Shown: piece after piece, positions 20,897 to 52,457 of the stretch
Layout of the letters: the number at the start of each line of letters is the position of its first letter
How positions within the stretch are numbered: the first letter of the stretch is position 1
From: Buxus sempervirens
Taxonomy: Eukaryota; Streptophyta; Magnoliopsida; Buxales; Buxaceae
Reading direction: 5' to 3'
DNA length: 64,000 nt
Assembly: GCA_947561395.2 (NCBI GenBank)
Contig: OX387190.1
Location: 18,346,858 to 18,410,857 of the forward strand
Program-made: the position numbers and the translations under genes
Notes under the pieces: model-generated
What the model was told of the DNA's origin: nothing
What the model saw: the letters and a program-made list of their open reading frames with translations, nothing else
Databases searched by the model: none

Positions 20897-21320
20897 TTTT
20901 GATGATTCCCACAAGAGTCAATGGAATGAGAAGAACTATCAGAGAAAGACAGAGGGAGTTTTCTTTTCTTGTTTGCATGCGATGGTGCTCAAGCTCAATA
21001 TTATCAGAAGAAAGCTCCTTAATAATTATTAGCTTCTCTTTCATTGGACTGTATCGAGAGGGTTTTCTAGATTTAGCTTTTAACAGAGGAAGCCTACGAT
21101 TAATGTCAGAGATCTTTAGATGAGGTGAAGGGTGTGGAGGATTTTCTTTTGAAGTATTGCAATGGTTGCTATTCGACGAAAGGAAGTTAGGAACTAACAA
21201 CAGAACACTCTGATCAGGGCCTTTTAAGTTAGACTTGATAATGCCTGAGAAAATAAAAGGTGTTGATCGACTACTTGGTATTAGTTTGAGGTCCCACTCC
21301 GGAATTGAGGATTCTTTAAT
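20897..21320 (-). pseudogene. LINE 1 ORF1 C-terminal part
   Basis: Low-complexity basic minus-strand frames (about 20900-21200) precede ORF2 with no spacer, as expected of the end of plant LINE ORF1. It is cut at 21320 by the Mutator-like element and resumes on the far side at 43362. The last nine bases (21312-21320) are the left TSD copy. Confidence 0.65.
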
Positions 21321-22536
21321 GGGAAAATTTCAAAAACATGCCACTTTACAGCGATTATTACAAAAACATGCCATAAAGATGCAAAATTTCAAAAACATGC
21401 CACTTTTGAGAATTATTACCAGAAAGGGATCATTGCACGTTTGGGGAAATTTCAATGCCCAAAATGCCCTTGGATATAAGGGCATGTTTGCACGTGCCCC
21501 GCTCTCTCCCTCCTCTCCTCTCCTCGCCTCTCGCCCTCGTCCTGTGCGAGCGAAAAAACCCACCTTCGAAACCCTAAACCCGACGACGAACGCCGGCTAA
21601 TCTTCTCAAAATCCGGCGAGCTAGGGTTCTTCCCGCGTTCTCTCCTCGTTCTCTCCTCTCCTCTCCTCTCGTCCTGTGCGGAATTTCAAAAAGTGAGAAC
21701 CCTGCGAATCCCAACCCTAAACCCGAAGCCGACGACGAACGACCGGCCAATCCCTTCTTCGCCGGCGAGCTAGGGTTGTTGCCGGAGCAAGTTTGCTTCG
21801 TCTCCAAGCCCGACGAACCCCCACGAACCCCGACCATTCTCATCTTCTTCTCCAGAAGGGCGAAACCCTCTCCTTCCCCCATTCCTCTCTTCGACGAAAC
21901 CCTCTCGTTTCGTGCATTGTTTTCCTCTCCTCTCTGTTTGCACACATTGAGGAATTCGTCGTTGGAGAGCCACCGCGGTTGAAGTTTGTTGCCGTCGACG
22001 ACCTGCTGTTCGTCGCCGTAGGGAGTGCTGCCGTTGGCGACCAGGTAGCTGCCGAGTGCCTCCTTTGAATTTTATTTTGCGAAATTGAATTTAAATTTGC
22101 GCATTTGCATATTTGCACATATTTAAATGGTAATCTTCTTGTAGAAATGTCTTAAATTTCAATGATTCTGTTGTTTGCCTTAGCGAAATGTGCCCTTTCG
22201 AATTTGAATATGAGTTATTTGCATGTTTTTCGAATATTGGCTGTAGTAAATGTTTACACCATCGTTGTCCAACTATAGAAGCGAGCAAGCAGCTCCATTA
22301 CACTGAAAAAAGTCCATGAATGATGTAGTGCTCTAAGTTGCGAATGTGTTCTGAAGCCATTAAATTTTTTGCTTCCACTCTAGCAATGGCCTTGTATAAC
22401 CATGCTTCTTTAGAAGTTCTTCCCAAATTCAATGAGTTTGTTGGCTCTACCGATGAGACTTCCAATACTTAACAGATTGTTATTGGAGGTTTTTGATCTC
22501 TTCTATTTTAAACTGAAAAGCAAACAGCACCAAACA
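21321..22536 (+). repeat. Left terminal inverted repeat, 1216 bp
   Basis: The outer 90 bases hold CAAAAACATGCCA three times (starts 21331, 21361, 21390; steps of 30 and 29), a likely transposase-binding array. Further in are a CT-rich leader-like stretch, two AAACCC/CCCTAAACCC telo-box-like words (about 21568 and 21713) and a partial internal duplication with GGCGAGCTAGGGTT (about 21615 and 21765). It resembles a promoter plus 5' leader more than simple terminal sequence. One difference from the right copy was found, at 22176. Confidence 0.92.
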
Positions 22537-24450
22537 GATGTAGAGAGCTAGCTAGTGAGTAGTGACATAAATTTCAAACATTCACAAGTATGTTTTAGCT
22601 TACACAATTTGCATAGTATAAAAAGCAAATTAAATTTATCATTGTATTCGAACTGTAGGCATAAATCTTTGATTTTTATATTATTTGTCATTGAGTTATC
22701 CCAAGAAATGCCTTTTAGTACCTTCATCAATTCTCATATGTTTCTTGCAATGTCTTTTATTTCTGAAGGATTGCAATTCTGAATCACATTTTCAGCTAAA
22801 CATTACAATGTCAAGAGATTGGTATTTTGTTGCCGAGTTGAATTCCAGGGTTTCAATTAAGTATCCATCAATCCATCCTCTTAAGAATTCCCAATTCCAA
22901 ATCCTAAGGCACCTACTTTTATTACCCAAAAAAAAAAAGTTAAAATAAATTTGGGAAATTCGATTGAGGAACTTATATAATCAAAATATGTGAAAAAATA
23001 AATTTAGAATATGGGTTTCTGCTATTTGGTAGGACTTCTATAAAGCCACCAATACATATAACCTATGCTTCGTGTCATGAAAGGGAAAACACTATCAAAG
23101 CAGTGCTATCAAATTTGTCTTCAACACGAATAAAACAAAATGAATATTAAGAAAGCAGAGATGTAGAATGTTAACTTACTGGGTCAAACTCAAATGTATC
23201 CCTGGTGCACAGATTCATCTCAAGTACTAGCAACTTTTTAAAATCCTCAGAAACAGACAAGAAACAAGAAGGCCTAAAATTCAATTGTCTAAACAATTAG
23301 AAATATCAAGAAGAGATTCAATTGCCAAATGAAATAATGAAAATAAAATGAAAAAGCATCCAAGATAGAGGCGGGATCATAAAAATTAAAATGCAGCATA
23401 ATGCACCTATCACCCATTATCCATGATGCTACTGATATGATCCAGAGGAGTTCAGTTTTGATCATTGCATATGTCTTGTGTTATTCGTACGGTGTGGTCT
23501 CAAGTTTTTTGTTTTTAACACTTTTCCTAGTATTTTGCCAAAGAAAAAGAAATTTGGAAAAGAGGCTGCTTTGTCCGCTTAGTAGATGTGTTTGTGGCTG
23601 CAACTTTGGACGAGCACATGGACAAGACGAGTCTTGCCAACTCATTTAACATTTGTAGAAATTGTCACACCGGGATTTCCACTGTGATGTATCTGGTCAG
23701 CCAAGCATCCTTGTAAAGAGATTCTGTTAATGTAGGAAAATGGTGTTTCAATTATTTTGTATTTTGTCATTGTTTTAGACTGGTGCCTCTGAAGGGTTGG
23801 GTTTATTGGTTATAGGGTGCTAAAGGCAATGTGAGGCCCTCTGAAATTCTTTTCCCTCAAGGTCCAGTAGTTCTTTTATTGAAGCATGAAAATCCTTATT
23901 ATTGGAAATTTAATCAACGTCATTAGTTTTGTTGAAACGCTACTTGCAGTCACCTAATATGCATTAAAAATAAGTTGTAACCCACTTTCTTGCAGTTATT
24001 TTATTGTTTGTGGATTAAGTTTTGTTTACCATTGATTTTTTGAGAGAAACATTCCGCATTTCATCTGCTTAAGCCATTAAAATGTAATAGGTGTTGGTGA
24101 TCCAGTTTAAATGCAGTATGTTGCATTTAATTGGTCTCTTTTTCTCTTGTTTCTATTTCTGGTAGTTGTTTTGAAGTGAAAACCTCCTACTAGGGAAATA
24201 GAATTATAATTTAACTCTACAACCTCTATTTTTTATTTACAATTTTTTTAAGTCTAAAGTCTTCCCCAACATCTGTCTTCAATTAATTTGAGGGGATTTG
24301 AGGGAAATTGACTGACATACCTGATCTGCCTATGTATTCTTGTCTTGTGAGTCATATTTATTTTAGTATGTTGTAATATTTCAAAATATATTTTTTCCAT
24401 TATATTTGAATATGAAGAATTTAATATTTCAATTCGCTGGACAGTGCACA
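22537..24450. other. Subterminal region of the Mutator-like element, no gene recognised
   Basis: AT-rich with many stops in all frames. No open frame has recognisable domains. It presumably contains the transposase promoter near its right end. A captured fragment too diverged to recognise cannot be excluded, because intron-like T-rich stretches occur around 22900 and 24180. Confidence 0.4.
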
Positions 24451-26740
24451 ATGTCAGATGAGATTCTATTCTGTTTTTGTCACATTGGAGGACAAGTAAT
24501 CACCAAGGAAGATGGGTCAATGGGGTATAGTGGGGGAAGTAGTAAGGGTGTCGATCTAAATAGCAACATGAATTATACTGAGGTCGTTGAAGCTGTTTGT
24601 CGGTTATTGAATATATCCCCGGTGAGTGTAAGTATGAAGTACTCGGTGAAGTTTGACAAGAGCGTTCTACTGGCACTCTCTGATCAAGATGCGTTATCGT
24701 ACCTATTTCGCTACAACGAGGGTTGGGCCAACATTTATGTCTATAATGATGAAGGATCATCACAAGAAAGAGACACTTGTCGGAGGTAATATTCATTAAC
24801 CGTACATGGGATTATGTTTCCTCCATATTACATGTAATGATAGTCATATATTGTGTAATTTCAGGACGAGTGTACCTTTAAGTGGTCACTCTGTACTTCC
24901 GTGCAATGACGATGAAGTAGAGGATCGGGAGACTCCGCTTCTTGAAAGTTGCACTGAAGTCAGCAGAGGTCCCCTTGTATCTAGCCTGTGGCAGGATGCA
25001 ATTACTGAGGTCGACCAGATATTTAAGAGCCCTAAGGAGTTTAGAGAAGCAGTGTACAAGCATGCTATTGCCAATAGGTTTGAATATGTGATGAAAAAAA
25101 ATTCTCCAGCATACATTAGTGTCCGTTGTGCAGGCACGGATTGTCCTTGGAAGGTAACGGCAAGACGTGTGAGGGATACGAGTTTTATGAGGGTGATGAA
25201 GTTTGTGAAGGAGCATAGCCACTCAGCCCAAGAGCAATTGTCTATGAAACCGGTTGTGAGAACGAAGTTCCTTTCTGGTGTGATTGAGAGGACAATTAGG
25301 AACACTCCAAGCTACTTGCCACGACAAATTGGCAAAGACTTTTATCATGATCATGCAATGCCATTGACATATCAGCAATGTTGGAGGAGCAAGGAAAAGG
25401 CGAAACAGAGGATAGATGGTAATGTGGAGGAGTCTTATAAGTTCATCCCATGGATGTGTGAACGGCTGCAAGAGAGTAATCCTGGCACAGTGGCAAGTTG
25501 GGCAGCAAGTGAAGATGGAAAATTTAAGCAATTGTTTATTGCTTATGGATGTTCCTTGAGGGGATTTGCGATCGGTTGCAGACCACTGTTGTTCATTGAT
25601 GGAAGTCATCTCAGTGGGCCATACCAGGGCACGTTGCTTTCTGCTACAGCCCTCGATGCTGATGACGGCATGTTTCCAGTTGCCTTTGCAATTGTTAGTG
25701 CTGAGAATAATGAGGATTGGATGTGGTTTCTACAACTTCTTAAGTCATCCATAGCCTTCAGAGAGGATTTAGTCATTGTAAGTGACAGGAATCAAAGCAT
25801 TATAACTGCAGTAAGTGCTACCTTTGGCGCTAGGAGCCACTCTCATTGTCTTCGACATCTGAAGGAAAACTTTAGTAAATTCGTTGGATCCTTTCATTTG
25901 AGGGAGGGAAAGAAATTTGCCTTACGGTTACTTGATGATATTGCTTACGCAAGGCTCCCTCGGGACTACGATAAGGCATTGGCTGCCATGCATGAATATG
26001 CACCTGACTTAGCTGATTGGGTGAGGAGGAATGGGCCCGAACATTGGGCCAATTCATTGTTCCCTATGAAACGGTGGGATAAGCTGAATTCAAATTTAGC
26101 GGAATCATTCAATGCTTGGATGGTAGAAGAAAGGAAATTGCCTGTAATGCGGTTTATTGATGCACATCGAGTGAAGCTTACAGAGCTATTGATGAGGAAG
26201 CGGAGGTGTATTGACACGTGGGTGTCCAATGTTGGTGGTCGAATTGATGCCAAGATTCAGGAGAATCTCACTAGGGCATTGGGGCTGAGTGTCATTCAAT
26301 GTGGGCAACATGAATATGAAGTTAGAGGTGATGAGATATATATCATGGTGCATTTAATCCGTCGTGAGTGTACGTGCAAACAGTGGCAGATGGTGGGCAT
26401 TCCTTGTGCACACGCATGTGCCGTCTTGAACTTGGTAAGGCTCAATGTATATGACTTTGTCGACCTATGCTACCACAAGGCAACGCAAGGGTTGATATAC
26501 GACGAATTGATGCATGCTGTGCCAACACATGACTTCCCCATGGTTGAGGACATCGACGTGGTTTCCATAGAAGATTCAAGTGAAACCCCATCTATCTCGT
26601 TCCCACCAAAGACAGCAAGACGTCCAGGGCGCCCTAAGCAGAAGCGCATTGAATCACAATTCCAAGACAAGCGACAGGTTCATTGTTCCAGATGCAAGGG
26701 TGTTGGACACAACCGAGCAAGTTGCAGAGCTTCAATATAG
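24451..26740 (+). CDS. MuDR-type transposase (MURA-like), two exons, 736 residues
   Basis: Model join(24451..24785, 24865..26740), with a GT-AG intron of 79 bases that restores the frame. This is the enzyme that cuts and joins the element's ends. Exon 1 encodes a PB1-like N-terminal region (CHIGGQVITKEDGSMGYSGG). Exon 2 has the MuDR DNA-binding zinc region (about 161-231, FKSPKEFREAVYKHA to HSH). The MULE catalytic core has the aspartates in FIDGSHLSG (about 355) and VSDRNQSI (about 420), a CLRH zinc-type motif and the glutamate in NLAESFNAW (about 524). Then come a SWIM zinc finger (CTCKQWQMVGIPCAHAC, about 614) and a C-terminal CCHC knuckle (CSRCKGVGHNRASC). There is no internal stop and all catalytic residues are present. 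Start choice: the ATG at 24451 opens directly into the PB1 region; an in-frame ATG lies 45 bases upstream. Confidence 0.93.
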
Positions 26741-27202
26741 AGACTGGCATGGTATAATGTGCAGGTTGTTGTAGTCCATCTTACATCTATTCATGCATCT
26801 AAGTTCTTGCTGTAGCCTGTAATTATCTTTGACTTACCGACGTCTAATTTGCAGGTTGGCGTGATGTGTTTTGCTGGGTGTCGTGAAATGTGGCAACAAT
26901 TGATCAACAACCCCACGAAACCTTATTTTTATTACTGTTTTATGAAGAACTGGTTTGCCACTTAGTCGTGGGTGCCGTAACATTGTGAAACATGTTGGTT
27001 GTGAAACATATTTTACTACCAACATTGGTGGTTTATTAGTTGCATTGTGAAACATGTTTTTGTGTTTATTATGACTTTGGGTAGTTGTAATGTTGCCTTA
27101 CTTTGACTGTTTGTGTTTGTAATCTTACCTGGTATGTAATTACTACTAACCTTCCTTGGTTTTAGTATATGTGCGTTATATTATTTTAGTTGCAGCTCAA
27201 TA

Positions 27203-28951
27203 ATGGGTAAGAAGAAGAAGGATGTCGCGTCGGGTAGTTCTTCTAGTGGCCCATCGCGTCCTGTGAATGCCTTCCTCATATTCAGGTGATGAAGTATAAA
27301 CAATTAAAGCATTGTTGTTTTACTGTCCAAATCCGAACTAAGTGGATTTCTAATGTTATACTTACTTCTTACAGAAATGAGTACCTTGAAACAATTCGGA
27401 AGAGTAGGTCTTCCATAAATGTCACGACGGTGAGTTGGTTAAAGTGCTATATATTAGTTGATAATGTTTACAGTGTCAATTGTAATAAATACAGTTGCAT
27501 TACTATTTTGTAGATCACGCAGGAGGCGCAAGGCCTATGGAAAGCGATGGATGCTGGTGCGAAGCAGAAGTATAAAGATTTATACAATCAACGAATGACA
27601 GAGTGGTTGGAAGCGGCCCCGACTCCAACAGGAAAAATAAGAGGAAAGGTATAACTTCATTTCTTGAACATTATGAATGTTTTGTATGTAGTTGCGTTAT
27701 ACTAACACATGTTTATGTAAGTGTAGGCGTCTCTGGGAACAAGATGCTCCCCAAAGCGATTTGTGCATTTCGTGACTTTGCTTGACGAGGACCAGCGACG
27801 TGTAGTTGTTGAGATAGGATTTGGTTCTCTTCTCCAGATGCGCTGCACATCCCTATGTGTGAAGCTTTGCGCCTGGTTAGTAGACCACATCGATGTACAT
27901 AGTCGTAGTTTGAGGATTGGATCCTCGGTTGTCCCCATTACCCCCGCCGCTGTAAGTACCATCTTGGGCCTTAGGAGCGAAGGGCCCAAGGTTGTCATAG
28001 ATGGTCCCATTGAGCAGCTTGCCCAGCTTCGGGCAAGCTTTACTTTTGATAGGCATGGCATAGCACTAAACGATATAGAGTCCAGATTGGCCACTCTAGG
28101 TTCCGGCCATGCCTTTCAACAGGCATTTGTACTATTTCTTGTGGGATGTTTGTTATGCCCGGGTTCGAACCCACACGTGAAGCTTCATTTTCTGCATGCC
28201 GTAGCTAATATTAGTAGGGTTGGGCAGTACAATTGGGCTGCTTTTGTACTTGATGTTCTGTTTGATGAAATTGTGAAATATCGGGAGAAAAAAAAAACCA
28301 ACATTGGTGGATGCCTCCTATTTTTACAGGTAATTTCGTCTCTGATTTGTTTTTGGTTGTATTAGTTCAAGATGACAAGTATATGCTGAATACACCATGA
28401 CTTCCCAAATTTTATTAATGTTTCAGCTTTTCTACTATGAAGTTGTACGTGTTGGTGATATTGAATCAAGTCGTCCAACGCCACGTCTGGGGTGGTGGGA
28501 CGACGATCGTGTGAAGTCACGGGAGAAGGCTGAGAAATCAGCAGGCGGGTATGGCAATGGGGAGGTAAAACATCATTTTCTATGCCCCTTCATATTCTAC
28601 ATGGTCTATTGTGGATGGACTATTAATATAGTGTAGTCGATGCAGGTGGTGGCACTGACGGTGCGTGCTGAGGAAGGAGTTGGAGATGTTGATGAAGGAC
28701 CTATTCCAGGGATTGATCCGGTAAGACTTGTCACCCCCTACGTTGGTCGTCGGTGTTGTTGACATGTTTTAGAATGTTCTAAATTATGAATACTTTGTTG
28801 TTAGGCATCCCAACAAGCGTTGGATGGCATGCGTGCATCGTTGCGCATGATGCAGGACGAGTATAAGATGGCTATCGCTTATGCATCCCAAATGGGTAGG
28901 CAAGATGGTATGTTCCGCACTAGATCTGGTTTCGAGAACCAAGTCTTGTAG
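27203..28951 (+). CDS. HMG-box plus plant-mobile-domain (DUF1985-like) protein, 411 residues
   Basis: Model join(27203..27285, 27375..27429, 27514..27648, 27727..28329, 28427..28564, 28646..28720, 28805..28951). All introns are GT-AG and the frame is kept throughout. A basic start (MGKKKKD) is followed by an HMG-box-like segment (about 18-80; SRPVNAFLIFRNEYLETIR, then GLWKAMDAGAKQKYKDLY), usually a DNA-bending fold. Residues about 100-303 resemble the plant mobile domain that accompanies C48 proteases in plant transposons (VEIGFGSLLQMRC, ITPAAVSTILGL, YNWAAFVLDVLFDEI, GGCLLFLQLFYYE). A helical tail follows. It lies 460 bases after the transposase on the same strand. I infer an accessory DNA-binding protein of the element. 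The last exon could instead splice at 28908; the read-through stop is chosen. Confidence 0.8.
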
Positions 28952-29475
28952 ATACGAGATTATAGTAGAATTGTATAAATACTTAACATGTGCTTACTGT
29001 TCTTGTCATTCAAAATTGGTTTCGTTTCGTCTTTGTTCTTGATAGTTACTTAAGTTTGGGTTTGTGTCTGTGAATGCAGGTCCATCTGCAAACTGAGGAA
29101 GAAGACTGGCTTCGTGAAATCTCCATCAAGTTATCATTTGGGAGTAAAGGCTGCAGGTAGCATGGTGCTCCCAAGTGAATGTTTCGTATACTATTATATT
29201 TTTGTTTTTTTCCCCCCTTCCTACGTCATAATACCAATGAGCAAGTTTTTTTTGACATTTGTAATTCTTTCTTTAAGTACTTGAGATGTCTTGCACATTA
29301 AAACTGAGATTCCTTTTCATGAGATATTGTATATGTATTGTGATGGGTGCTCTTTTAATTTATGGGTTCACACTTCACAGAAGGAAACTAAGAAGGCCAC
29401 AGCTGTTACATGGATGGAATTATCGATGATATTTAATATATTTATCCACCACCTTGAAATTGAATAAAGAGGTCC
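28952..29475. other. Spacer after the HMG-box gene, no gene recognised
   Basis: It contains a possible extra splice acceptor (TGAATGCAG/GTCC, about 29079) and T-rich sequence that may be the 3' UTR of the upstream gene. Nothing else is supported. Confidence 0.4.
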
Positions 29476-30571
29476 ATGATGCTTCCTTTTATCTTGTTGT
29501 CCTTTTCCAAAAAAGGTATTGAACACCAATTGGGGAAACCTAAATTCAGTGTGTGTTTGTTCCCTCTGCAAGGACTAATTACAGATAATGTTAGGTTCTT
29601 GTTCCCAGCCTTCGGAGGCTTATTATTTGGATATGATATTGGTGCTACCTCCGGGGCTACTATCTCTTTGCAGGTACTGGTACATGAGATCCTTCAATGG
29701 AGTCCTTTCATTCACCTTTTGTTGAATCACCCAATTATTTGTTTACAGGATGAAAGGGAGCTTAAGAGGCAAAGAAGAAAGCAGTCTAACAGGGAATCAG
29801 CACGACGTTCGAGGCTTAGAAAGCAGGTTAGAGATGTTTTTGGATTTTTACTTACTCATAGACAAGAAGATTAATAACTTATATTAGTTGTTCTCTGGTA
29901 GCATCTATGCTGATTCCATGAATGCCCTCAATTGCAATATGCCAATTAGTCATGTGTTTTATGTAATATGAGGGCACTTATGTAAGTTGACACACTTTCT
30001 CACCTACTTGATTTGTCCATATGCAATCTAGCAAATGCATGGAAAATTTATATAGTTACCTATGTAATCGATTTAATTACCTGCTACCACACCCCCCAAC
30101 CCCCCCGCGCCCACGTGCAACATCCTCTTTCGGTCCTTCTATTAGTATTGATCACTCAAATGTCATTAGGCTAAGTGTGAGGAACTTGCTCGTCGAGTGG
30201 AAACACTAAAAGAGGAGAACACTTCCCTCAGAGATGAACTGGGGCGTATAAAAGAGGAATGTGAGAAATTGGCATCAGAGAACACCTCTTTAACTGTAAG
30301 TTTTGCATATGGTTCTGATATATTAGTTTTTTCCCCCAAGCATGATACTGATTCCATATAGGGCTACTGTCTTAATATTCCATATTTTTCTGATGTCTGA
30401 TCTTTCATATTTTGCTACTCTTTTGGTGGATTTATTTGTAACTTGATGCTTTCTATCATACATATGTAGGAGAAGCTTCAGAAGTATCAAGGACAGAACT
30501 CAGTAGAAGATGAGAGTAATGGTCACCCAGATGCTGATCCCCAAACAACAGCTAACATAGATGCAATCTAA
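29476..30571 (+). pseudogene. Captured chimera: sugar-porter exon fused in frame to a G-box bZIP C-terminus
   Basis: 29573-29673 encodes FLFPAFGGLLFGYDIGATSG, the first membrane segment of a plant xylose-symporter/vacuolar glucose-transporter-like porter, ending at a GT donor. After 75 bases, 29749-29826 encodes the bZIP basic region (RRKQSNRESARRSRLRKQ), 30170-30295 the leucine zipper and 30470-30571 the C-terminus. All have GT-AG borders in phase 0 and an intact stop. The region is GBF-like. The frame is open without a break from an ATG at 29476 to 29826, so a 192-residue protein is possible by splicing the last two introns. This is a typical gene capture by a Mutator element. Whether it is expressed is unknown; it is labelled pseudogene because both parent genes are partial. 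Confidence 0.82.
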
Positions 30572-32989
30572 TGAGATTTATGAATGCAGGTAGCTTATAG
30601 TTCAAATAACTCAATGGCCAAGCAGTTTGGTTTTTAGAAACTGACTTCTGGTGTTATTAGTGAAAGCTCTGTTCCCTTTCCCTTCTTAATTTTCCTGTTT
30701 CAAGAGAAAGGTGTCCCACTATGATCGGTATTTCTGGAGATGGATGTGTACTTTGTTTTTACTAAAAAAGAAAAAAACCCTATGCTAATTATGTTACAGG
30801 AAACTCTTACTAACACTAGAAGAACTAATGCCAGAATTACAATTATGGCTTTGTATCATTATTTAACTATCGGATATTGTGGAAACTCATGTTTGGTTAA
30901 ACCGTACTCTCCATTTCCAGTGCTTTCTTCATGGTTTGTTTCATTTCAGTATGAAATGTCAACTGGCTGCATCTGCAATTGAATATAATCTTGGATATGA
31001 AAAAATTCAATTACATCTCCCTTCCCTGCCCACGCCAAGCCCAGACTTCAGCCTTTAGATAATCATTATATCCAATGAGATCAGAATGGTGGCTATAATA
31101 CCCTTGTGATCCTGGTTTTCTCATTGAGCAACCATTAAATTGAGTTTGGTAGTTCCCCCTTTGGGAGGCTTTTATGAAGCCCTGCTACAATTTGTTGGTG
31201 AAGATGATAAGGCTTCTGTATACCATGCATTTGAAAATATTTGAAACTGATAACTGTCTGAACTCTTGAGTGGTGCATATCAAAGAAGATACTAAGTATG
31301 CATACTTAACAGATGGAAAATGGTGCAAGCAAGTGTAGTGTGCCAAACACCAAAAATTTTTTTTTTTTTAATTTAATTTGAAAATTGAAATAGAAGGCCC
31401 AAATTTCTGAGCTGGCTAAGTAGCAGATGCATTTTCATATTTCCATGCTTACATTAAAAATGGTTTAGTAAGTCTATTAAATCTTCTTTATTTAATGCAT
31501 GGTTACATGGGTATAAAAGATGCAGGCTTATCTGTATTAACAGCAGATTAATGCACATTATATTTTTCATGTAGTTCAAATAGTTTAGTCTCTTATAGAC
31601 CTTAAACCAAAACCCCAAAAAATGTGCCTTTTAAGGCTCAAATCTTGTATTATTTCTATGGAATTGTAGATTGTTTAAATATCAATAAATTCCATGTTTG
31701 AGAGGCATTAAATCTTTTTATGAAATGTGGGACCTTGAACTTGCAGGTTGATCGAGGTATCTAAAGGTGCCACATGGTGGGAACTGCAATTATAAATATT
31801 GGATTTCTTTAGTCATATGGAATCTGGGATGTCTCCCAAATTTAATGAGCCAGTGCTTTACAAGTCCACCTAACAGCTACGTTTCGTCAAGCTGCCACAA
31901 CAAGATATTTAAAGCAACACCTTTATCACAATAAGTGTTTTGCAATTGGTCATCTGTTGCATTTATGGAGTAATTTTTGTTGGGTTTTGGTTTTTCTTCC
32001 CAAGGGTTTTTGTACTTTTTTGTTGTTTTGTTTTTTACTCTGTTTGCTCAACCCTTGTGGGTACCTTGTACTTTTTCCCCCTTTTAATATTTACGTTTCT
32101 GAAACATTCAATCAAATGTACACATTTGTCGTACGTGGAGTTCTCCAGTCAACAGCTATGGATTTCTGCAATAAGAAAATGTACAGAGTTGTGTGCTTTA
32201 AATGTCTGTATCTCCCAAGTGTGCTTTAAATGCCTGTATCTAGCTATGAGATTTAAATGCATGTATCTTCCATTATCTAGATACAGGATTCAAATGCCTG
32301 TATCTAGCTGTGTGATTTAATAGGTTACTTCACAGTCTTTGGAACCACGGTCCGGCCAATGAATTGATTAAAGATTTTATCCAGCTGTCTGAGTCATTAG
32401 ATAAACCCAGAAATTTTGTTGGAGAAGATAAATCCTTTGTTTGTTGTTTGGAAAATTGTGTTATGTATTGAGATTGTGAGATCCTAAGATAGTAAAAGAA
32501 AGGGCGTTTCTTTGTTTTTCTTTTTGGGTGGTACCTGCTGCATTTCTGAATGGGAGCTTCAATTGCGATACAGGTAAAAGCAACGGAGTTGATTAATCAA
32601 ATGGAAGTCACAATGCGTATTTGTGGGCCATACAGTGGTGGACTTATACAGGGGTAACGTTTTCACAATTTGCAGTTAACCAATGAAGAGTGATTGAGGT
32701 CTCCATTTTCACTATTTCCTTCATTCTTATTTTCTGGGCACTATATGATGTAAGTTCTTTTCCTTTGTATCATTAGCGAATGTGAACATTGTATCAAACA
32801 TAATGTTCCTTTTCCATGAAAATGGAAATAAAACTACTTTTAGGTTCTCATACATGGTCTTCAGTTACATATTACACAATAGTTACTAGCATTTTGTCAA
32901 ACCAAATAAAACTACATTTAGTAGCATTTTGTAACCAAAACTCAACGACAACCACACCAAACATGCATCTCCATCACCGGTTAACCAAT
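30572..32989. other. Probable captured 3' flank and unassigned element sequence
   Basis: No coding region is recognised in 2.4 kb. The left part may be the 3' UTR of the captured bZIP gene. A short repeat (TTYAAATGYMTGTATCT) occurs four times at about 32197-32305. Scattered CAG/GT junctions (e.g. 31745, 32571) hint at further eroded exons, but no product can be named. Confidence 0.4.
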
Positions 32990-33688
32990 TCATTCGTCCA
33001 GTTTAACTTTGTCAATGTCGTGAAGCAACTCACGGTATATGTCGGACATCCTTCTCGCATGATCACGCTCCTCCTGCAATAGCCGTCGTTCTACTTCCCA
33101 TGCCCTTGGCTGTATTTGTTCAGTGTTTTCTGCATCGCATGAATTCGACGATTCACCCTTTTCTACCCCAACTTCATTCAACCAGGAGAAGAAATGGCAG
33201 CTTTGTTCGCCCTGGAAATACAATGACATGAAAATCAATTAGGAAGTCCCCATTGTGAAAAATATCTCGTGTGGGAGGAACGTATTTGAGTGCTAAACAA
33301 CTCCACACATACTTCAAAAGGACATCGGTAAAATCTTCTCCCTTTGTTTGTTGGAGTTTTTGCGGTTAACACACGGCATGGTCCCCTCCCACATTCACAC
33401 AGTAATAACTCATCGCACCAAACAAAATACCCACATCCATTCCCACCATTGCCCTGTAAGAAATAATGCATTTAATTTAGACAGTCTTATAATAGTTGAA
33501 TGGCCAGATTGGTAAAAATGCATACTTACAGACGATGGACAAGTGAAAAAAAAGCGCCCTGGATTACGTGAGGTGTGGGAGAGTTTCCTTTTAAGCATCC
33601 CTTTCCCGCATGGACATGGGACACGAGCGTGGGGATCGGTAGCCTTTGCCGAAACTTCCATTCTTCCTTCGCACAAAGGGTAGCGCAT
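32990..33688 (-). CDS. Tandem GRF zinc-finger protein with C-terminal coiled coil, 173 residues
   Basis: Model complement(join(32990..33211, 33313..33453, 33530..33688)), GT-AG introns, all phase 0. Two GRF-type zinc fingers follow each other. The first is CPCGKGMLKRKLSHTSRNPG, then RFFFTCPSS and CGYFVWCDEL across an exon border. The second is CECGRGPCRVLTAKTPTNKG, then RFYRCPF and CHFFSWLNE. The tail (REWEVERRLLQEERDHARRM-like) is charged and helical. GRF fingers bind single-stranded or structured nucleic acid in APE2, NEIL3 and TOP3A. In plants they also occur in short proteins of unknown role. The frame stays open upstream to 33925, where it enters the tandem array, so an alternative start would add 79 repeat-derived residues. 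It converges with nothing and is transcribed toward the captured bZIP. Confidence 0.82.
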
Positions 33689-33889
33689 AAGTGACTCGCT
33701 TGACACACTTGTATTTATAAACGAGCCGGAAGGCAGGCCCACGTGAAACACGTTGGTTGTATTAGTAGATGCGAGCACGCAAAATATGAGGGCACTTGAC
33801 CTATTTACTAAGGACTCGACCGTACTTGACATACGACTCAAGGACACCAACATAGGACTTTTAGTAGGAGGGACTCGAGCAATTTTACA

Positions 33890-35340
33890 TGGGACGCGAG
33901 CTAAGTATATGTGGGACTCAAGCAATTTTACATGGGACTCGAGCTAAGTATACGTGGGACTCGAGCAAATTTACATGGGACTCGAGCAATTTTACATGGG
34001 ACTCGAGCTATTTTACACCGGACACGAGCTAAGTATACATGGGACTCGAGCAAATATACATCGGACTCGAGCTAAGTATACATGGGACTCGAGCAAGTAT
34101 ACATTGGACTCGAGCTAAGTATACATGGGACTCGAGCAAATTTACATGGGAATCGAGCTATTTTACACCGGACACGAGCTAAGTATACATGGGACTCGAG
34201 CAAATTTACATGGGACTCGAGCTATTTTACACCGGACACGAGCTAAGTATACATGGGACTCGAGCAAATATACATCGGACTCGAGCTAAGTATACATGGG
34301 ACTCGAGCAAATTTACATTGGACTCGAGCTAAGTATACATGGGACTCGAGCAAATTTACATCGGACTCGAGCTAAGTATACATGGGACTCGAGCAAGTAT
34401 ACATTGGACTCAAGCTAAGTATACATGGGACTCGAGCAAATTTACATGGGAATCGAGCTATTTTACACCGGACACGAGCTGTATACCATGCATGGGACTC
34501 GAGCAAATTTACATGGGACTCGAGCTATTTTACACCGGACACGAGCTAAGTATACATGGGACTCGAGCAAATATACATCGGACTCGAGCTAAGTATACAT
34601 GGGACTCGAGCAAATTTACATTGGACTCGAGCTAAGTATACATGGGACTCGAGCAAATTTACATGGGACTCGAGCTATTTTACACCGGACACGAGCTAAG
34701 TATATATGGGACTCGAGCAAATATACATCGGACTCGAGCTAAGTATACATGGGACTCGAGCAAATTTATATTGGACTCGAGCTAAGTATACATGGGACTC
34801 GAGCAAATTTACATGGGACTCGATCTATTTTACATCGGACACGAGCAGTTGGATACATGGGACTCGAGCAAATTTACATCGGACTCGAGCTATTTTACAT
34901 GGGACTCGAGCAAATTTACATCGGACTCGAGCTATTTTACATGGGACTCGAGCAAATTTACATCGGACTCGAGCTAAGTATATGTAGGACTCGGGCAATT
35001 TTACATGGGACTCGAGCAAATTTACATCGGACTCGAGCTAAGTATATGTAGGACTCGAGCAGTTTTACATGGGACTCGAGCTACGTATACGGGAGACGAC
35101 TCGACGTGGTTTACATGGGACTCGAGTTATTTTACATGGGACTCGAGCTAAGTATATGTAGGACTCGGGCAATTTTACATGGGACTCGAGCTTAGTATAC
35201 GTGAGTGCCGTAGCTAATTACATGGGACTCGAGTTATTTTACATGGGACTCGAGCTAAGTATATGTAGGACTCGAGCAATGTTACAAGGGACTCGAATTA
35301 TTTTACATGGGACTCGAGCTAACGATAGGCGGGACCACGG
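33890..35340. repeat. Tandem array of about 43-bp units built on GGGACTCGAGC
   Basis: About 67 half-units of 21-22 bases alternate between ACATGGGACTCGAGCAAATTT and ACATCGGACTCGAGCTAAGTA types, each with a CTCGAG palindrome. Larger blocks of several units are repeated (higher-order structure), and a sparse edge runs from about 33800. It lies immediately upstream of the GRF gene. Open frames in several phases on both strands are repeat artefacts and not separate genes. Confidence 0.92.
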
Positions 35341-35812
35341 GACTGGATCATATCCCCTTCACATAAATCTAAACAAAGTAAAAGTTCAAATATCCTGAGC
35401 CCAAGAATTTTTATCAAACTTCAACTTTTCAAATAGCCTGAACCCAAGGTCTAAGAGCCTGAGCCGAGCTCGTTTACAGCCTTACCAAACTCAAATTTTA
35501 ACCACCTTCTGTTAATACCACCCACGTTTTTTTTTTCTCCAGCTGTTCACGAAGATAACAAGGAACGAATACTGATCTGACCTCCGCGTAATTGGACAAC
35601 CCATTCTCTTACTAATCAGCCATCACAGCAGCATGCCGACCTGTTTTTCAGTCCTCGGCTCTAAGCAGTTAAATTTTGAGGGATGTGAAGCGTATCCATT
35701 TTCTTTAGAATTTACATAATGATTACAATTTTGCTATGAAGAACCTTTCAGAAAATATAAGACCATGCTCGTTGACAATTCATCAAATTTGTTAATAGGA
35801 TTATTTTTCTGC
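35341..35812. other. Spacer between array and captured ABC exons
   Basis: A repeated phrase (TCAAACTTCAACTTTTCAAATAGCCTGAACCCAAG-like, near 35380-35450) is visible. No gene is recognised. Confidence 0.35.
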
Positions 35813-35870
35813 CATTGGAATCAGCACCATCGATAAGGTCATTATGCTGTCTCCAGAGCTGTGTATATCT
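35813..35870 (-). pseudogene. Second, diverged copy of the ABCB last exon (fragment)
   Basis: The minus strand reads RYTQLWRQHNDLIDGADSN, clearly homologous to RYAQLWGQQNNPIDGVDSN in the adjacent captured exon but with several replacements. It is a partial second copy placed 36 bases downstream of the first. Confidence 0.75.
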
Positions 35871-35905
35871 TCCTGCTTTTTATAGGGTTTCGGTGTGTGC
35901 TCTTC

Positions 35906-36624
35906 TCACACTCTTGCTTCAACTCTGACGTTTGAATCAACCCCGTCAATAGGATTATTTTGCTGTCCCCATAGCTGTGCATATCTTCCTGAATTTGATA
36001 ATAAAACTTCATGTGGCCCCTGTTCATGCACCTTCCCATTCTCTAGAACAATAACCTGGAAAAAAATAAATAAATAAAAAATGGAAAATAAAGTAAACAA
36101 CGAACAAGATAAGCCAATTGAAAAGAAATCATATCTGTACACACCCACACACAAGAAGCCAACCCACAACCACTGCCGCTGCAGCACCACCAACACCGCC
36201 CTCCTCCCCCCCACCAAACACAAAACACCACCCCACCACCAAAAAAGCAAAAAATTCAACCACACACCCCCACCACCAAACCCAACCACAGAAAAAAAAA
36301 AAGGAACACCAATTCCCTGCAGAATCAGTAACAAGGAAGATAATATGCAGATGGTGGTTAGTCTAGTCTAGCTTTCTCTACACCCAGTTATCAATCTACT
36401 CAGATAAGTCAAAAGCGAGAACCATCAGAAAAGAAAAAAAAACACACAAATACATTTATAACCAGTTCCCCCAGCAAGAAATGCTCACGTCATCACACTG
36501 CATAGCAGTTGTAAGCCTATGAGCAAGGAATATGGATGTCCTATTATTCGCTAGGGATTTCAGTGCACTTAATATCTCTGCTTCTGTTGTACTGTCTAGA
36601 GCACTCGTAGCTTCGTCACAAAGC
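35906..36624 (-). pseudogene. Captured 3' exons of a mitochondrial ABCB (ATM-type) transporter
   Basis: complement(join(35906..36055, 36489..36624)). The upstream exon encodes the Walker B/D-loop and switch region (CDEATSALDSTTEAEIL, then TSIFLAHRLTTAMQCD). The downstream exon has VIVLENGKVHEQGPHEVLL and the C-terminus with stop. Residue choice matches plant ABCB23/24/25 (ATM) half-transporters of the mitochondrial inner membrane, which export sulfur compounds for cytosolic Fe-S assembly. Both exons are in phase with GT-AG borders and have no stop. The membrane domain and Walker A are absent, so this is a captured fragment. The 433-base intron contains a C/A-rich low-complexity stretch (36140-36290). 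Confidence 0.85.
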
Positions 36625-37352
36625 CTAATTGGAAACAGATCAACAGGCAATATTATAATCTGCTGAAAACAATTGTTTTCCTCTTCCTTTTGCCATCCAT
36701 AAGAACTAAAATAAACCAAACTTTCAGAAAAGCCTGAAGAATCATTACAGATTTGACATGAGTAGAGGCACAATAAAACAACAGGAAAGAACAAAAACAG
36801 AGAAACGTAAATAATCATGTTATCATGAAGCTAGTGTGATGTTAACATATGACATGGAGAAAACAATGAAGAAGTCGATTTAAATTTTACAAGTCGAAAC
36901 AATATTTGACAAAATTGAACTGCCTCAACTCAAAAGATCTCTGAATATTTCACAATATACTTAAGAAGGGCTTCAGATATTTCGAACGTGAGGAAGAAAA
37001 ATCCATTCCATACACATGATTTAAGTAATGGCAGGATCTTTCACGTGACTGAACCAAAAGTTGATAATGTACAGCTAAAATCACTAATATTGAGGGAAAA
37101 AAGTACGCATCCACATTATCATGAACGTTTAAGCATCTCAATTACCCGTACTGGATAGATCCACGCTTGCTTGCATACACAAAACAAAGTTGTAAGAAGA
37201 CGAAGAGACATCGTGAAGGACACGTAAAAGAAGGACGAAACTAGCATCAGCATCATTGGTGCTAAGACAAATGACTTGAAGTGAAAATAGACTGACAATA
37301 GGGATTTTTCCTTATATTGATGTGGTAAACAATTTAAATAAACTATGCATAC
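36625..37352. other. Spacer between two captured fragments
   Basis: No recognisable coding sequence. About 40 bases at 37103-37143 (GTACGCATCCACATT and GTTTAAGCATCTCAATTA) recur at 37741-37781, so the ERD6-like fragment lies between direct repeats. Confidence 0.4.
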
Positions 37353-37571
37353 CTCAGACAATATAATCCACGGAATGGGTTCCATTCCCAACGACTATGC
37401 TATTACAAAAGCCTGAAAGATAAAAGTTATGTAAAAATAAGGTTACAAATCATTGACAGAAAAAAACTAACAAGACTTCAGAAAATTTCACATAACTAGA
37501 CATACCACGAGTCCAACTACAGACAGTATGCTCATAATACTATGAAAGTGAGGATCTTCTGATACAACACT
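37353..37571 (-). pseudogene. Captured exons of an ERD6-like sugar transporter
   Basis: Exon 37506-37571 encodes VVSEDPHFHSIMSILSVVG and exon 37353-37412 encodes SLGMEPIPWIILSE, both with GT-AG borders on the minus strand. These match consecutive segments of plant ERD6-like monosaccharide transporters (tonoplast sugar porters; the PIPW motif precedes TM10). A TAG stop replaces an aromatic residue near the start of the second exon, so it is not functional. No further exons are recognised. Confidence 0.8.
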
Positions 37572-37870
37572 CTGACAGCAATAGGAACAGCAGAAAAGGC
37601 ATTTCAAAAAGAAGAATATAAATCGCTTCTACTAAATTCCTGGAATTTTCATAATCTAATACAAAAGTAAACAAAAATTAGAAGAAGGTCACAAAATTAA
37701 GAGACTTTAGAAAGAATGCAACTCAAGAAGGTCGAAATTCGTACGCATCCACATTCTCAGGAAGGTTTAAGCATCTCAATTAGAACGGGAACTTGATTGT
37801 GTTTGCAGGGTGGAGCAACAGGTATGCTAACAATTCATGCCGAAAGTGTCCAATATTTTCCTGTTACAAT

Positions 37871-40470
37871 TTAAATGAAACACTTGCTAAAAAAAATTCT
37901 GTAAGTCTTAACCACATCATGTTGCATAGGAAAATATATACTTGCCTGCCCAAACCTAGTCGACAATTGATGCCCATCCCAATATTCCATGTACTTCATT
38001 ACGAATACACCACAATCGTCACTACACAACAAATGGAAAAGATCAAGAGAAGGTAGACATGGCAAATAACTAGAAAGTACAGGTGTTATTGGGGGTAAGG
38101 TAAAGCTATAATTCAATGTAGTAATTATTCATGATCGAACAATAATGATTTCATGTTTTTTCCCACTGTATTTTAAGCATGTAATATTATTGCAACACCG
38201 AGGATACTTTTAATTTCATTTCAAGATTTATTCTTCAATAAATATCACCATTATTCAGATGATAATACCCAATGAATCTAGCTAAAATAATTTTAATAAT
38301 TGGAATTACAAATAAAATCAAAATAAATTAGACTCCACCAATACGTATCTTGCTAAAGAATTTTAATAATTGGAATTATTTATATCATAATACCCAATGA
38401 TATACCTATAATATTTGAGTTTCAATCTCAACGACTAAAAGAATGTGGCACCCCGGAACCAGGTCGACCCATATCAGGTTTATATTGGCTCCTGGGCGCT
38501 AGCTTAGGGCCCAAAGTAATGAAAACCAACTTCAGAACTAACCAAACACACAAAATAACCTCTTAAATTTTTTTCAGAAAAACGGCTATATAACGCCTGT
38601 AAATAGGAGTATGGGCTAAGCCCTCAAACACAAATGACCACCTGATAAATACAATTTATACATCCACGCAAAATAACTAAACCATCCTAATATACAATTG
38701 TATAATCTCACTAAGTTTACATCGTCTCTCCATCTTCCCATCTACACCATCTTTGAGCTCCACAGGTTGCTTATTTGGAAATAAGCAAATAAGCAACCTA
38801 AGGGCATTATCCAATATCTCTATAATGGTCATGTAATTTAAGGTAACATATGAGTGATAAAATTGGGAACTTACGAAGTACTTTGACAGGGCACAGACAC
38901 AGGCACCACTGACCACTCCTGCACTCTCTTGTCACAGCCACGTTTAAGCTCCTCAAAGACTTTTGAAAAAAAAGTTGTCTGCAATGAAAATTGAACCATT
39001 CAATATCAATTTATATAATACATTGAAACTATATAGCTTTTTACATACCAATTTCGTTGATACAGCACGGTAATCACCAGGCCGACTCTTCGGTACCGAA
39101 TCTAACACTTCGATCCGTTGGTCCTTGATGTTCAAAACAACCAAGAACCAATGGTTCCTCCTCAAGATCGGTAGGAAAACCTATCAAATGACAATACAAG
39201 GTGTACTAGGCGTTAATAATTATGTAAATGAGAGTAATAAAATATTCGAAATTTATCATACCATATGACATCGAAGCAAACTACATCCTACAACATCTCG
39301 TGAAAATTGACTTCGTACAGCATCTTCTACAGTCACTGTTCCTTTTAGGATTGCAGCCTGTAAACCACAAGTACAATATATTAGTCCGCTGTAGTACTCC
39401 ATATGCATTGATAATTAATTATTCTAAGCGTCCTAACATACAATCCTATATACGTACAGATGTGTAGGGTGTAATGTAATGACGACGGATAGTTGATGCA
39501 TGTTCCCGCGTAGATTTGACACGAGCAAGCACATACATGTGCATAACCTATTCCACAATCACCTGAGTGAGAAAACTAATCCAAGTACCATTGTAACCTA
39601 AAACAAATGATACACTTTTCGATACAAATAACTTACCAGGTCGCTAACCCTTCGTCGTGGAAAAAGACCAAGTAGATCGAATCGAGTCGCAAAGCAATCA
39701 CCGAAATCAACAAGTTTTTCCCTACATGCGTCAATTCCACTTATAAGGGGAAAAAAAAAAAAAACAACAACCAACTATAAACACAATATTGAATGGTGTA
39801 AATCTGTTAATTACTCTCAATTACAGAAGATATATACTTACATCGGCGACAACCCTGGTGTCATGGCATACATCCACGCTTTTGTCTCTCGTTCAGGTAA
39901 TGGGGGGAATCTATGCGTCTCGACAAAGGGTGACCTCAATTTATGTACAAGGTGCTTTACTCGCTTCCCCCTACCTCTGGGACAAGATTGCATCGTACTT
40001 GGACCCTCAGATGTATTTGCGGGTTCATCAGTTGGCACACTTCCAGCAAAAGGAGGTGATGAAAACTCTGCGTGTGCATCAACAGTGCCATCGCCATCTG
40101 GAGGTGGTGGAGGAGGCACATCATCATTACAAGGCCAGTCGGGCTCCGCATCTGGAGGTGGTGGAGGAGCCACATCATCAGTACAACGCCAGTCAGGCTC
40201 AGCATCTGGCGGTGGTGGATGTCGATGGGAGTGGCGTAAAGAGCCAGCAAAGTCGGTACAATGCCGTGTGAAGTCACGGGCAAAGCCGATCATACGAACA
40301 ATGTGACTTCGTAATACCTACGACAATGAAAACATATTGATGAAAGGAGATGTATAGAAGAATGTGTAAAATAAAAGAAATAATGCAATGGCTTGCCTTA
40401 CCGGATCTATATCTGTCGGCACGTGAGTCACATCATCTGCCGCCCGCTCCTGATCCCGTGCAAAATCCAT
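37871..40470 (-). CDS. Ulp1/C48-type SUMO-protease-like gene of the Mutator element, 400 residues, eight exons
   Basis: Model complement(join(37871..38021, 38875..38978, 39049..39180, 39262..39357, 39458..39547, 39637..39721, 39842..40317, 40402..40470)). Every border is GT-AG and all phases agree. Exon 2 holds three PPPPPDAEPDW-type repeats, a flexible linker. The C-terminal half is the cysteine protease: histidine in RRNHWFLVVLNIKD (about 282), aspartate in EVLDS (about 299), glutamine in PCQSTS (about 348) and cysteine in DDCGVFVMKYMEYWDG (about 354). The full triad is intact. Such proteases cleave SUMO or related modifiers; in Mutator elements their role is unproven. Start at 40470: first ATG, in frame, next to the intron. 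Exon 4 uses the acceptor at 39548, because the one nine codons upstream would include a stop. Confidence 0.87.
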
Positions 40471-42145
40471 GCCTAAGGCACATAACATTCACACACAAAA
40501 TATGATTTTAAACTTTAATACAAGATGCCACCTTGCCTCATTCCTGTTTAATAGGCCTTTAAGTTACATCCATTCCATATGGAAAATGCCTGAATTACAG
40601 ATGGTGAAGGGTCTCTTCTGCCATGTTTTCTGGCCACAAAATGCCTGAACTAGGTATCAAATTTGGCAAGCTATGCCTTTTTCACTATGATTCTCTGTAT
40701 TTGTTTAATTCTTATCTGGTTGTTTGTTCCTTGTAAAAAACTTTTATTTCATTTCTTTGTTTGCTTTTATGCATTTTTCATTGCTTGATAGATTTATTTC
40801 TGCAACAACTTATTGGCTGGTTGTTCATTTTAAGTTGCCTGTATTGGTAATTGAAATTTTCAGGTGATTCAAAGGAAATTAATTGATGTAGCCACACCAT
40901 TAACCCCCATAGATGGTAACATTGGACCTGATGCTGTTCATCTTCTTGCTTTAAAGGAGGGTTGTGCTGCTTTTTGTTGGTTGCTTTGTTATATATATTT
41001 GTTGAAAGTCTTTAGTCATTGGGCAACTTGTCAATTCAGATTTCTTATGATCCATATTCTTGTTTTCATTGTTTTCAATGTTATCTTTTGGTTTATTACA
41101 TCTATTAATTCGTTTTGGAGATTGAGATTGGATGATAGGAGAGGTGGGTTTTGATTCAGATTCAGCAGAAAATAATGATATGAGGAGGAGGAGGTGATGG
41201 GCATAACAACATCTACTGCTGATAAACATTTGCAGTAAGGCTTGATGCTCTGTGCAATGCAGAAAATAACTGATTTTGGCATGGCAGTAGCAGTAAGGTT
41301 TAATTCCTCTCTCTATCTTTAATGGGTTTATTTATGTTTATTTAACCAAAAAATTAGACGGTAAAACAGAGGTAATAGATACACTTATTTGTGCTAAAAG
41401 TATTTACATTTACTTAATTATATTGTGGTCAATATCTACTACAAAAATTGAGGTGCAGTCTCCTATCAAGATGTCCTGAGTCTAAGCCTGAGAACACAAA
41501 GGTGGCAATGTTAAATTCAGGCCACTTTGTGAAACTACCCCTTTGGAAATAGGGATCTGTTATCAAAGGTATCATCACCATCAGATCTTTGATTTGGCAC
41601 AAAGGTTATAAAGTCTTATCTACTGCAGCTGATAGGTTCCAGGTCATGGGTCATTACCTGACACGAGGCTAATATGATGGTTGTGATCTATGACGACAGT
41701 GAAAGTATTTGTGGTGGTTGCATGGGGAGTGGAGCATTCACCCTTAAAAGAAGGCATGATTGAAGGCTTTGTTGGTATGGAGTAAGGACTAGGTAGGCGT
41801 CGGTCATGTTCCATATTTCTTAATGCCTCACAACACACTCCAAAAGCCTATTATCATGTTCCATATTTCTTATGCAACTGACCTGATTGGGGGAAGAGGA
41901 GGACTCAAAATGTTATGTGGCTGTTAAATATACCTTTTATTTACTAAATTGTAAAGACTATGGTTGCTCTCTCTTTGCCTCTCTTATAAGATGAGAAATT
42001 TTCATTCCTTTTGATTTGAATTGTCACAGGATATGAAGAAGATACAGCAAAAGCAAAAGTTCAGTTTTTGGTCCAAATGAGGAGAAAAAACCAGCATCTC
42101 AAGCAACCCTGAATAGCCTGCACAAGAGATATCCGAAGATACTAT
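40471..42145. other. Right subterminal region with one unidentified exon-like segment
   Basis: 40864-40956 (plus strand) is an exon-like open segment bounded by TTTTCAG/ and AAG/GAGG and reading QRKLIDVATPLTPIDGNIGP. It looks like a captured host exon, but I cannot name the gene. Other open frames here are short and lack features. Confidence 0.45.
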
Positions 42146-43361
42146 TGTTTGGTGCTGTTTGCTTTTCAGTTTAAAATAGAAGAGATCAAAAACCTCCAAT
42201 AACAATCTGTTAAGTATTGGAAGTCTCATCGGTAGAGCCAACAAACTCATTGAATTTGGGAAGAACTTCTAAAGAAGCATGGTTATACAAGGCCATTGCT
42301 AGAGTGGAAGCAAAAAATTTAATGGCTTCAGAACACATTCGCAACTCAGAGCACTACATCATTCATGGACTTTTTTCAGTGTAATGGAGCTGCTTGCTCG
42401 CTTCTATAGTTGGACAACGATGGTGTAAACATTTACTACAGCCAATATTCGAAAAACATGCAAATAACTCATATTCAAATTCGAAAGGGCACATTTCGCT
42501 AAGGCTAACAACAGAATCATTGAAATTTAAGACATTTCTACAAGAAGATTACCATTTAAATATGTGCAAATATGCAAATGCGCAAATTTAAATTCAATTT
42601 CGCAAAATAAAATTCAAAGGAGGCACTCGGCAGCTACCTGGTCGCCAACGGCAGCACTCCCTACGGCGACGAACAGCAGGTCGTCGACGGCAACAAACTT
42701 CAACCGCGGTGGCTCTCCAACGACGAATTCCTCAATGTGTGCAAACAGAGAGGAGAGGAAAACAATGCACGAAACGAGAGGGTTTCGTCGAAGAGAGGAA
42801 TGGGGGAAGGAGAGGGTTTCGCCCTTCTGGAGAAGAAGATGAGAATGGTCGGGGTTCGTGGGGGTTCGTCGGGCTTGGAGACGAAGCAAACTTGCTCCGG
42901 CAACAACCCTAGCTCGCCGGCGAAGAAGGGATTGGCCGGTCGTTCGTCGTCGGCTTCGGGTTTAGGGTTGGGATTCGCAGGGTTCTCACTTTTTGAAATT
43001 CCGCACAGGACGAGAGGAGAGGAGAGGAGAGAACGAGGAGAGAACGCGGGAAGAACCCTAGCTCGCCGGATTTTGAGAAGATTAGCCGGCGTTCGTCGTC
43101 GGGTTTAGGGTTTCGAAGGTGGGTTTTTTCGCTCGCACAGGACGAGGGCGAGAGGCGAGGAGAGGAGAGGAGGGAGAGAGCGGGGCACGTGCAAACATGC
43201 CCTTATATCCAAGGGCATTTTGGGCATTGAAATTTCCCCAAACGTGCAATGATCCCTTTCTGGTAATAATTCTCAAAAGTGGCATGTTTTTGAAATTTTG
43301 CATCTTTATGGCATGTTTTTGTAATAATCGCTGTAAAGTGGCATGTTTTTGAAATTTTCCC
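42146..43361 (-). repeat. Right terminal inverted repeat, 1216 bp
   Basis: Reverse complement of the left TIR. All overlapping open frames translate identically except one codon (position 42506, pairing with 22176). It ends at GAAATTTTCCC before the putative TSD ttctttgtt. Confidence 0.92.
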
Positions 43362-52317: not shown

Positions 52318-52457
52318 ACTTAAAGCTGGAATTAGAGATTCCTAGGTAGTACGACCTTAGGAAACCCGGGGAAAATTACTGTGTGTACGCTAGGGTGAAC
52401 CATGAGGTATAGAAGAGAGCTCCTAACTAATATGGTGTTTGTTGATTTCAGGAAATC

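What the first reader, a model, noticed from the sequence alone, without database searches (positions are those of the whole stretch)
21321..43361. A 22 kb Mutator-like element encoding four intact proteins: transposase, HMG-box/mobile-domain, GRF zinc finger and Ulp1 protease
Seen: 1216-bp collinear TIRs and four gene models whose splice phases all agree and contain no stops (24451-26740, 27203-28951, 32990-33688, 37871-40470). Known: MuDR has mudrA and mudrB, and some plant Mutator elements carry a Ulp1-like gene. Inference: the HMG-box and GRF proteins are conserved accessory factors of this lineage, giving a DNA-bending protein, a single-strand or structure binder and a SUMO-type protease alongside the transposase. 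I know of no description of this set together.
Basis: partly seen in the sequence, partly recalled or inferred. Interest (0 to 1): 0.92.

Follow-up and report, generated by a model that had tools for sequence, protein, structure and literature searches.

The report
Mutator transposon with accessory gene kit
A 22-kb plant jumping gene carries, besides its transposase, three helper genes kept together in dozens of copies in one genome, and one helper has the predicted fold of a protein that other jumping genes use to undo the plant's silencing.

Summary
Window 21321-43361 is a Mutator-like element with 1216-bp identical TIRs and four open, splice-consistent genes: MURA, HMG-box+plant mobile domain (PMD), tandem GRF, Ulp1. 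Of seven colinear copies read, four keep all genes open. Perfect 9-bp TSDs were seen in five of seven copies with both ends read; the window's is 7/9.

The set is not a one-off: 37 of 61 MURA rows have all four genes nearby. HMG-PMD follows MURA in 55 of 61, including 6 of 6 of a family with 62-67% identical MURA. A third family has HMG-PMD and Ulp1 beside a FAR1-type transposase, in four near-identical copies only. GRF was found in the window's family only.

The parts
21321..22536 (+). left terminal inverted repeat, 1216 bp
   Evidence: 41 matches in the own genome, 40 of 376 candidates scored
42146..43361 (-). right terminal inverted repeat, 100% identical to the left
21312..21320 (.). left 9-bp flank TTCTTTAAT; the right flank 43362-43370 is TTCTTTGTT (imperfect TSD, 7 of 9)
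24451..26740 (+). MURA-like transposase, exons 24451-24785 and 24865-26740, 736 aa
27203..28951 (+). HMG-box + plant mobile domain protein, 7 exons (27203-27285, 27375-27429, 27514-27648, 27727-28329, 28427-28564, 28646-28720, 28805-28951), 411 aa; the exon 27727-28329 models as the VANC21 fold
32990..33688 (-). tandem GRF zinc finger protein, exons 33688-33530, 33453-33313, 33211-32990, 173 aa
33870..35322 (.). oriented tandem motif array (GGGACTCGAGC mostly every 21-22 bp), 50 CTCGAG, 182 bp upstream of the GRF start codon
37780..40470 (-). Ulp1-type (C48) protease, 9 exons, 408 aa; an 853-bp intron at 38022-38874 and a GC-AG last intron
29750..30572 (+). captured bZIP gene fragment, three exon-like pieces
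   Evidence: Pfam bZIP_1 5.2e-7 for the first piece; copies compared
35930..36625 (-). captured ABC transporter fragment, closest PDB chain Arabidopsis ABCB25 (species recalled)
   Evidence: 6e-41 to 7n58

Best explanation
This is a recently active, autonomous-looking long-TIR Mutator-like element. SHOWN: four open genes, colinear young copies, HMG-PMD kept beside the transposase in diverged families. SHOWN AS PREDICTED FOLD: the PMD matches VANC21. INFERRED: the HMG-PMD protein acts like VANC21: it binds the oriented motif array inside its own element and strips silent chromatin, so that the element's genes are expressed and MURA can act on the TIRs. The HMG box would add non-specific grip or bending. 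The Ulp1 protease would remove SUMO-type marks from silencing or transposition factors, and the GRF pair would bind single-stranded or forked DNA; these last two roles are weaker guesses.
Confidence: 0.6

Rival explanations
1. The HMG-PMD protein is an architectural part of the transposition complex: it bends or bridges the TIRs for MURA, and the array is incidental satellite growth.
For: HMG box in F1 and, below the curated cut-offs, in F2 and F3; the gene follows MURA directly in F1 and F3.
Against: In F2 it lies beside a FAR1-type transposase with no MURA row within 25 kb; the PMD fold match is to an anti-silencing DNA binder.
Confidence: 0.2
2. The PMD protein acts as a decoy or inhibitor of the host MAIN/MAIL silencing pathway without binding the element's array.
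For: Host PMD proteins MAIN and MAIL1 silence transposons, and the authors of PMC5418596 speculate that MULE-captured PMD serves anti-silencing (passages).
Against: The array resembles VANC targets; the window PMD exon is only 36-42% identical to the HMG-PMD host proteins aligned.
Confidence: 0.12
3. The accessory genes are passengers that hitch-hiked in one burst.
For: The element carries evident passengers (bZIP and ABCB25-like pieces); GRF was found in one family only.
Against: Fixed order and orientation in dozens of loci, HMG-PMD in three families, constraint on PMD between families.
Confidence: 0.05

Closest known systems
VANDAL elements and VANC21 of Arabidopsis
   Same: Mutator superfamily; extra gene whose product has the fold predicted for the PMD; oriented short-motif tandem arrays in non-coding DNA (PMC5735166, passages).
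   Different: VANDALs are described as non-TIR MULEs (PMC13317346, passages); here 1216-bp TIRs. No sequence similarity to VANC seen; here the PMD is joined to an HMG box.
Kaonashi (KIU) and other ULP1-carrying MULEs of Arabidopsis, melon, rice, grapevine
   Same: C48 protease gene in reverse orientation to the transposase in KI-MULEs (PMC2528002, passages); KIU genes are described as VANC genes with a Ulp1 domain (PMC13317346, passages).
   Different: KI-MULEs are non-TIR, and KIU joins VANC and Ulp1 in one gene; here they are separate genes on opposite strands. No passage read mentions HMG-PMD or GRF.
PMD-containing MULEs of grasses and Amborella (PMC5418596, passages)
   Same: PMD carried by a MULE.
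   Different: There PMD is fused to the transposase; here it is a separate gene joined to an HMG box.
HMG-PMD-SINA host gene
   Same: HMG then PMD order; 32-42% identical to the window protein among the 120 rows listed.
   Different: A host gene, in most rows with a SINA domain, which the element protein lacks. Direction of descent not shown.
Pack-MULE
   Same: Carries host gene pieces between MULE TIRs.
   Different: Encodes its own open transposase.

Membership tests
Mutator superfamily (MULE) | MULE transposase domain | tested here: met
   PF10551 1.4e-16, above cut-off
Mutator superfamily (MULE) | about 9-bp target site duplication | tested here: met
   perfect 9 bp in 5 of 7 copies with both ends read (one of the five is a run of A); window copy 7 of 9, E3 none
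Mutator superfamily (MULE) | terminal inverted repeats in many families | tested here: met
   1216 bp
MuDR | mudrB gene | not tested
   no search with MURB was made
VANDAL/VANC | VANC protein recognised by sequence | tested here: inconclusive
   VANC21 not among the 60 best PDB rows shown of 78 and of 66; Pfam lists for the protein at E<=1 only PMD and HMG types; no VANC protein was compared directly
VANDAL/VANC | VANC21 fold | tested here: met
VANDAL/VANC | oriented short-motif tandem arrays in non-coding DNA | tested here: met
VANDAL/VANC | non-TIR ends | tested here: not met
   1216-bp TIRs
VANDAL/VANC | motif binding and hypomethylation | not testable with these tools
   needs binding and methylome data
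Kaonashi (KIU) | C48 protease gene opposite to the transposase | tested here: met
Kaonashi (KIU) | non-TIR MULE | tested here: not met
Pack-MULE | captured host gene fragments | tested here: met
   ABCB25-like piece 6e-41
Pack-MULE | no transposase of its own | tested here: not met
   MURA open

The most novel reading that the evidence does not exclude
The plant mobile domain, a domain of unknown function found in host silencing factors (MAIN, MAIL) and in transposons, is the VANC fold. Long-TIR MULEs use an HMG-tethered version as a sequence-specific anti-silencer whose target arrays turn over with it, and this kit with Ulp1 can change between MURA- and FAR1-type transposases. Host silencing and transposon anti-silencing would then rest on one related protein fold.
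Probability: 0.4. Interest if true: 0.92.

Novelty: new variant of a known kind. Interest (0 to 1): 0.8.

Why it matters
PMD proteins silence transposons in Arabidopsis by a mechanism that remains unclear. A VANC-like fold gives the domain a testable activity, sequence-specific DNA binding. It would also extend VANC-type anti-silencing beyond non-TIR VANDALs, and offers a natural set of copies with differing arrays for testing co-evolution of protein and target.

Tried and rejected
One-off capture: rejected for HMG-PMD and, with less reach, Ulp1. F3 with the full set: 10 kb downstream of one F3 HMG-PMD (L055) has no Ulp1 or GRF by tblastn, and 0 of 6 F3 MURA rows have an F1-type GRF or Ulp1 row within 25 kb; a diverged Ulp1 could be missed. 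GRF homologues elsewhere: 15 candidates, none at E<=0.001. Element-encoded HMG-PMD in other plants: none recognised in two protein searches (120 of 135 rows listed; 94), whose named rows are, as far as I recall the plants, eudicot host proteins; a few rows are unnamed. Annotated proteins were searched, so transposon copies may be missing. Rooting the PMD tree to tell domestication from capture: not possible (unrooted, long branches). The first pN/pS for Ulp1 is invalid, as a frame-shifted copy was included; one search replaces it. Odds: I lowered the novel case from 0.45 to 0.4 on re-reading, because only 4 of 73 FAR1 rows have HMG-PMD nearby. Papers: ten searches listed no paper that I could see to describe an HMG-PMD, GRF and Ulp1 set, or PMD and VANC sharing a fold. 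The library lacks most subscription papers, and the paper behind 9lnj was not found, so it may already note this. All papers cited were seen as passages only.

Full report
WHAT IS THERE. The TIRs are exact and the element is 22,041 bp. The Ulp1 protein aligns to SENP2 with His, Asp, Gln and Cys positions kept (their catalytic roles are recalled). [quoted passage not shown] The element also holds pieces of a bZIP gene and of an ABCB25-like gene.

A YOUNG FAMILY. In the unnamed 676.5-Mb own genome 41 TIR matches were listed (40 of 376 candidates scored). Seven colinear copies were read: E1 (window), E2, E3, E5, E6, E7, E9; the right end of E7 lacks the TIR tip. All four genes are open in E1, E2, E3 and E9; E5 has a stop in MURA, E6 a frameshift in Ulp1, E7 frameshifts in MURA and HMG-PMD. 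Both ends were seen in E1, E2, E3, E5, E6, E9 and the 4.4-kb E12: 9-bp TSDs are perfect in E2, E5, E6, E9 (a run of A) and E12, imperfect in E1, absent in E3, whose left end lacks the first bases.

CO-OCCURRENCE. PMD exon: 99 rows; GRF: 78; Ulp1: 92; MURA: 61. GRF within 12 kb of PMD: 39 of 47 (90-100% identity class), 17 of 22 (80-89), 1 of 8 (70-79), 0 of 22 (40-60); chance 0.31 under random placement. Ulp1 within 20 kb: 39, 15, 1 and 0 of the same classes; 49 loci have both; chance 0.6. Every pair has the window's orientation. HMG-PMD within 10 kb after MURA: 15 of 15, 33 of 37, 1 of 3 and, in family F3 (62-67% identical MURA), 6 of 6; all four genes: 13, 23, 1 and 0. So 6 of 61 MURA rows lack a listed HMG-PMD and 24 lack the full set.

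OTHER FAMILIES. F2 (C14:1.45 Mb and others) encodes HMG-PMD (50% in the PMD exon) and Ulp1 (27-71% by exon) around an array with 22- and 88-bp periods; its HMG box scores 3.7e-4 and F3's 7e-4, both below the curated cut-offs. The nearest transposase to F2 is FAR1-type (FAR1 6.5e-25, MULE 6e-28). Four of four FAR1 copies of at least 99% identity, on three contigs, have PMD 9.86-9.92 kb away on the same strand and Ulp1 16.0-18.0 kb away on the opposite strand, with no MURA row within 25 kb; two of the four share a contig and identical spacing and may be a duplication. Against a general link: 0 of 4 FAR1 copies at 90-97% and 0 of 65 at 76-89% have a PMD row within 15 kb, so 4 of 73 in all, and 18 of 22 F2-class PMD lack FAR1 nearby; a neighbouring or nested FAR1 element carried along is not excluded, and the ends of F2 were not seen. 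Six of 22 F2-class PMD have F2 Ulp1 within 15 kb. F3 (L054) has MURA ending about 0.5 kb before HMG-PMD. PMD of F2 and F3 are sisters (100/96; 61% identical), although F3 shares MURA with F1: this points to a change of transposase in F2, an inference.

SELECTION. Between families: MURA F1-F3 dS 1.82, dN 0.25; PMD F2-F3 dS 1.26, dN 0.25; PMD F1-F2 dN 0.44 and Ulp1 F1-F2 dN 0.46 with dS saturated. Against: two F2 copies differ at the PMD with pN/pS 1.72 on very few changes. Within F1 the counts are 8N:6S MURA, 5N:4S HMG-PMD (2N:4S for the PMD exon over 16 rows, some of them the same locus twice), 5N:1S GRF, 15N:5S Ulp1: too few to judge.

ARRAY. 33870-35322: 50 ACTCGAG in one orientation against 2 in the other, mostly 21 or 22 bp apart or multiples. 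No CTCGAG elsewhere in the element, 7 in the other 42 kb of the window. Eight longer copies (E16 read in part) have 38 to 59; E12 has none. Genome-wide the doubled motif occurs 1,928 times against 159 for the backwards control; of the 100 places listed, all on C1, I count by eye 8 clusters, 6 in loci with element genes, 2 (16.88 and 46.64 Mb) with none mapped. F2's array: 146 TATCC against 12 in the other orientation, 137 of 145 spacings 22 bp.

HOW IT PROBABLY WORKS. Known: VANC proteins bind such arrays and remove silent marks (PMC5735166, PMC10398659, passages), and KIU genes combine VANC with Ulp1 (PMC13317346, passages). Inference: HMG-PMD does the same here. The roles of Ulp1 and GRF are domain-level guesses; KIU proteases may not act on SUMO (PMC6117577, passages).

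HOST GENE. The nearest proteins are HMG-PMD host genes, mostly with a SINA domain: 135 hits, 120 listed. The own genome shows no PMD hit above 43% to P0001 (71 of 2,552 candidates scored), while the fetched hosts have a median of 85% in that part, and its four SINA hits, 47-49%, form an array on C10. The plant is therefore probably outside core eudicots or lacks the gene (inference); it was not identified.

Noticed in passing
G000 C10:34417121-34431063: Four SINA-like genes in a tandem array, 47-49% identical to the SINA part of the HMG-PMD-SINA gene, with no listed PMD hit nearby.
   Followed up: partly
P0001-P0122: A widespread host gene joins HMG box, PMD and, in most rows, a SINA domain; sources name it variously as E3 ligase or phosphatase. 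It may be domesticated from, or the source of, the element's HMG-PMD gene.
   Followed up: partly
G000, 65 FAR1-type rows of 76-89% identity: 19 of 65 have a Ulp1 row within 25 kb, always downstream and opposite, and none has a listed PMD row within 15 kb: a numerous FAR1 plus Ulp1 family.
   Followed up: partly
window 38022-38874: The large Ulp1 intron holds a 74-bp stretch that is 85% complementary to 49919-49992, perhaps an inserted small repeat.
   Followed up: no
window 21312-21320 and 43362-43370: TIRs are 100% identical yet the flanking 9-mers differ at 2 of 9 positions; possible mutation, or recombination between copies.
   Followed up: no
L027: A 4.4-kb copy (E12) with 99% identical TIRs, perfect TSD and no motif array: a non-autonomous derivative.
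   Followed up: partly
window 52446-57140: Long open frame of a Gypsy-like polyprotein (identification recalled), flanked by repeated tandem-repeat blocks at 50.6-51.8 and 57.9-59.1 kb.
   Followed up: no
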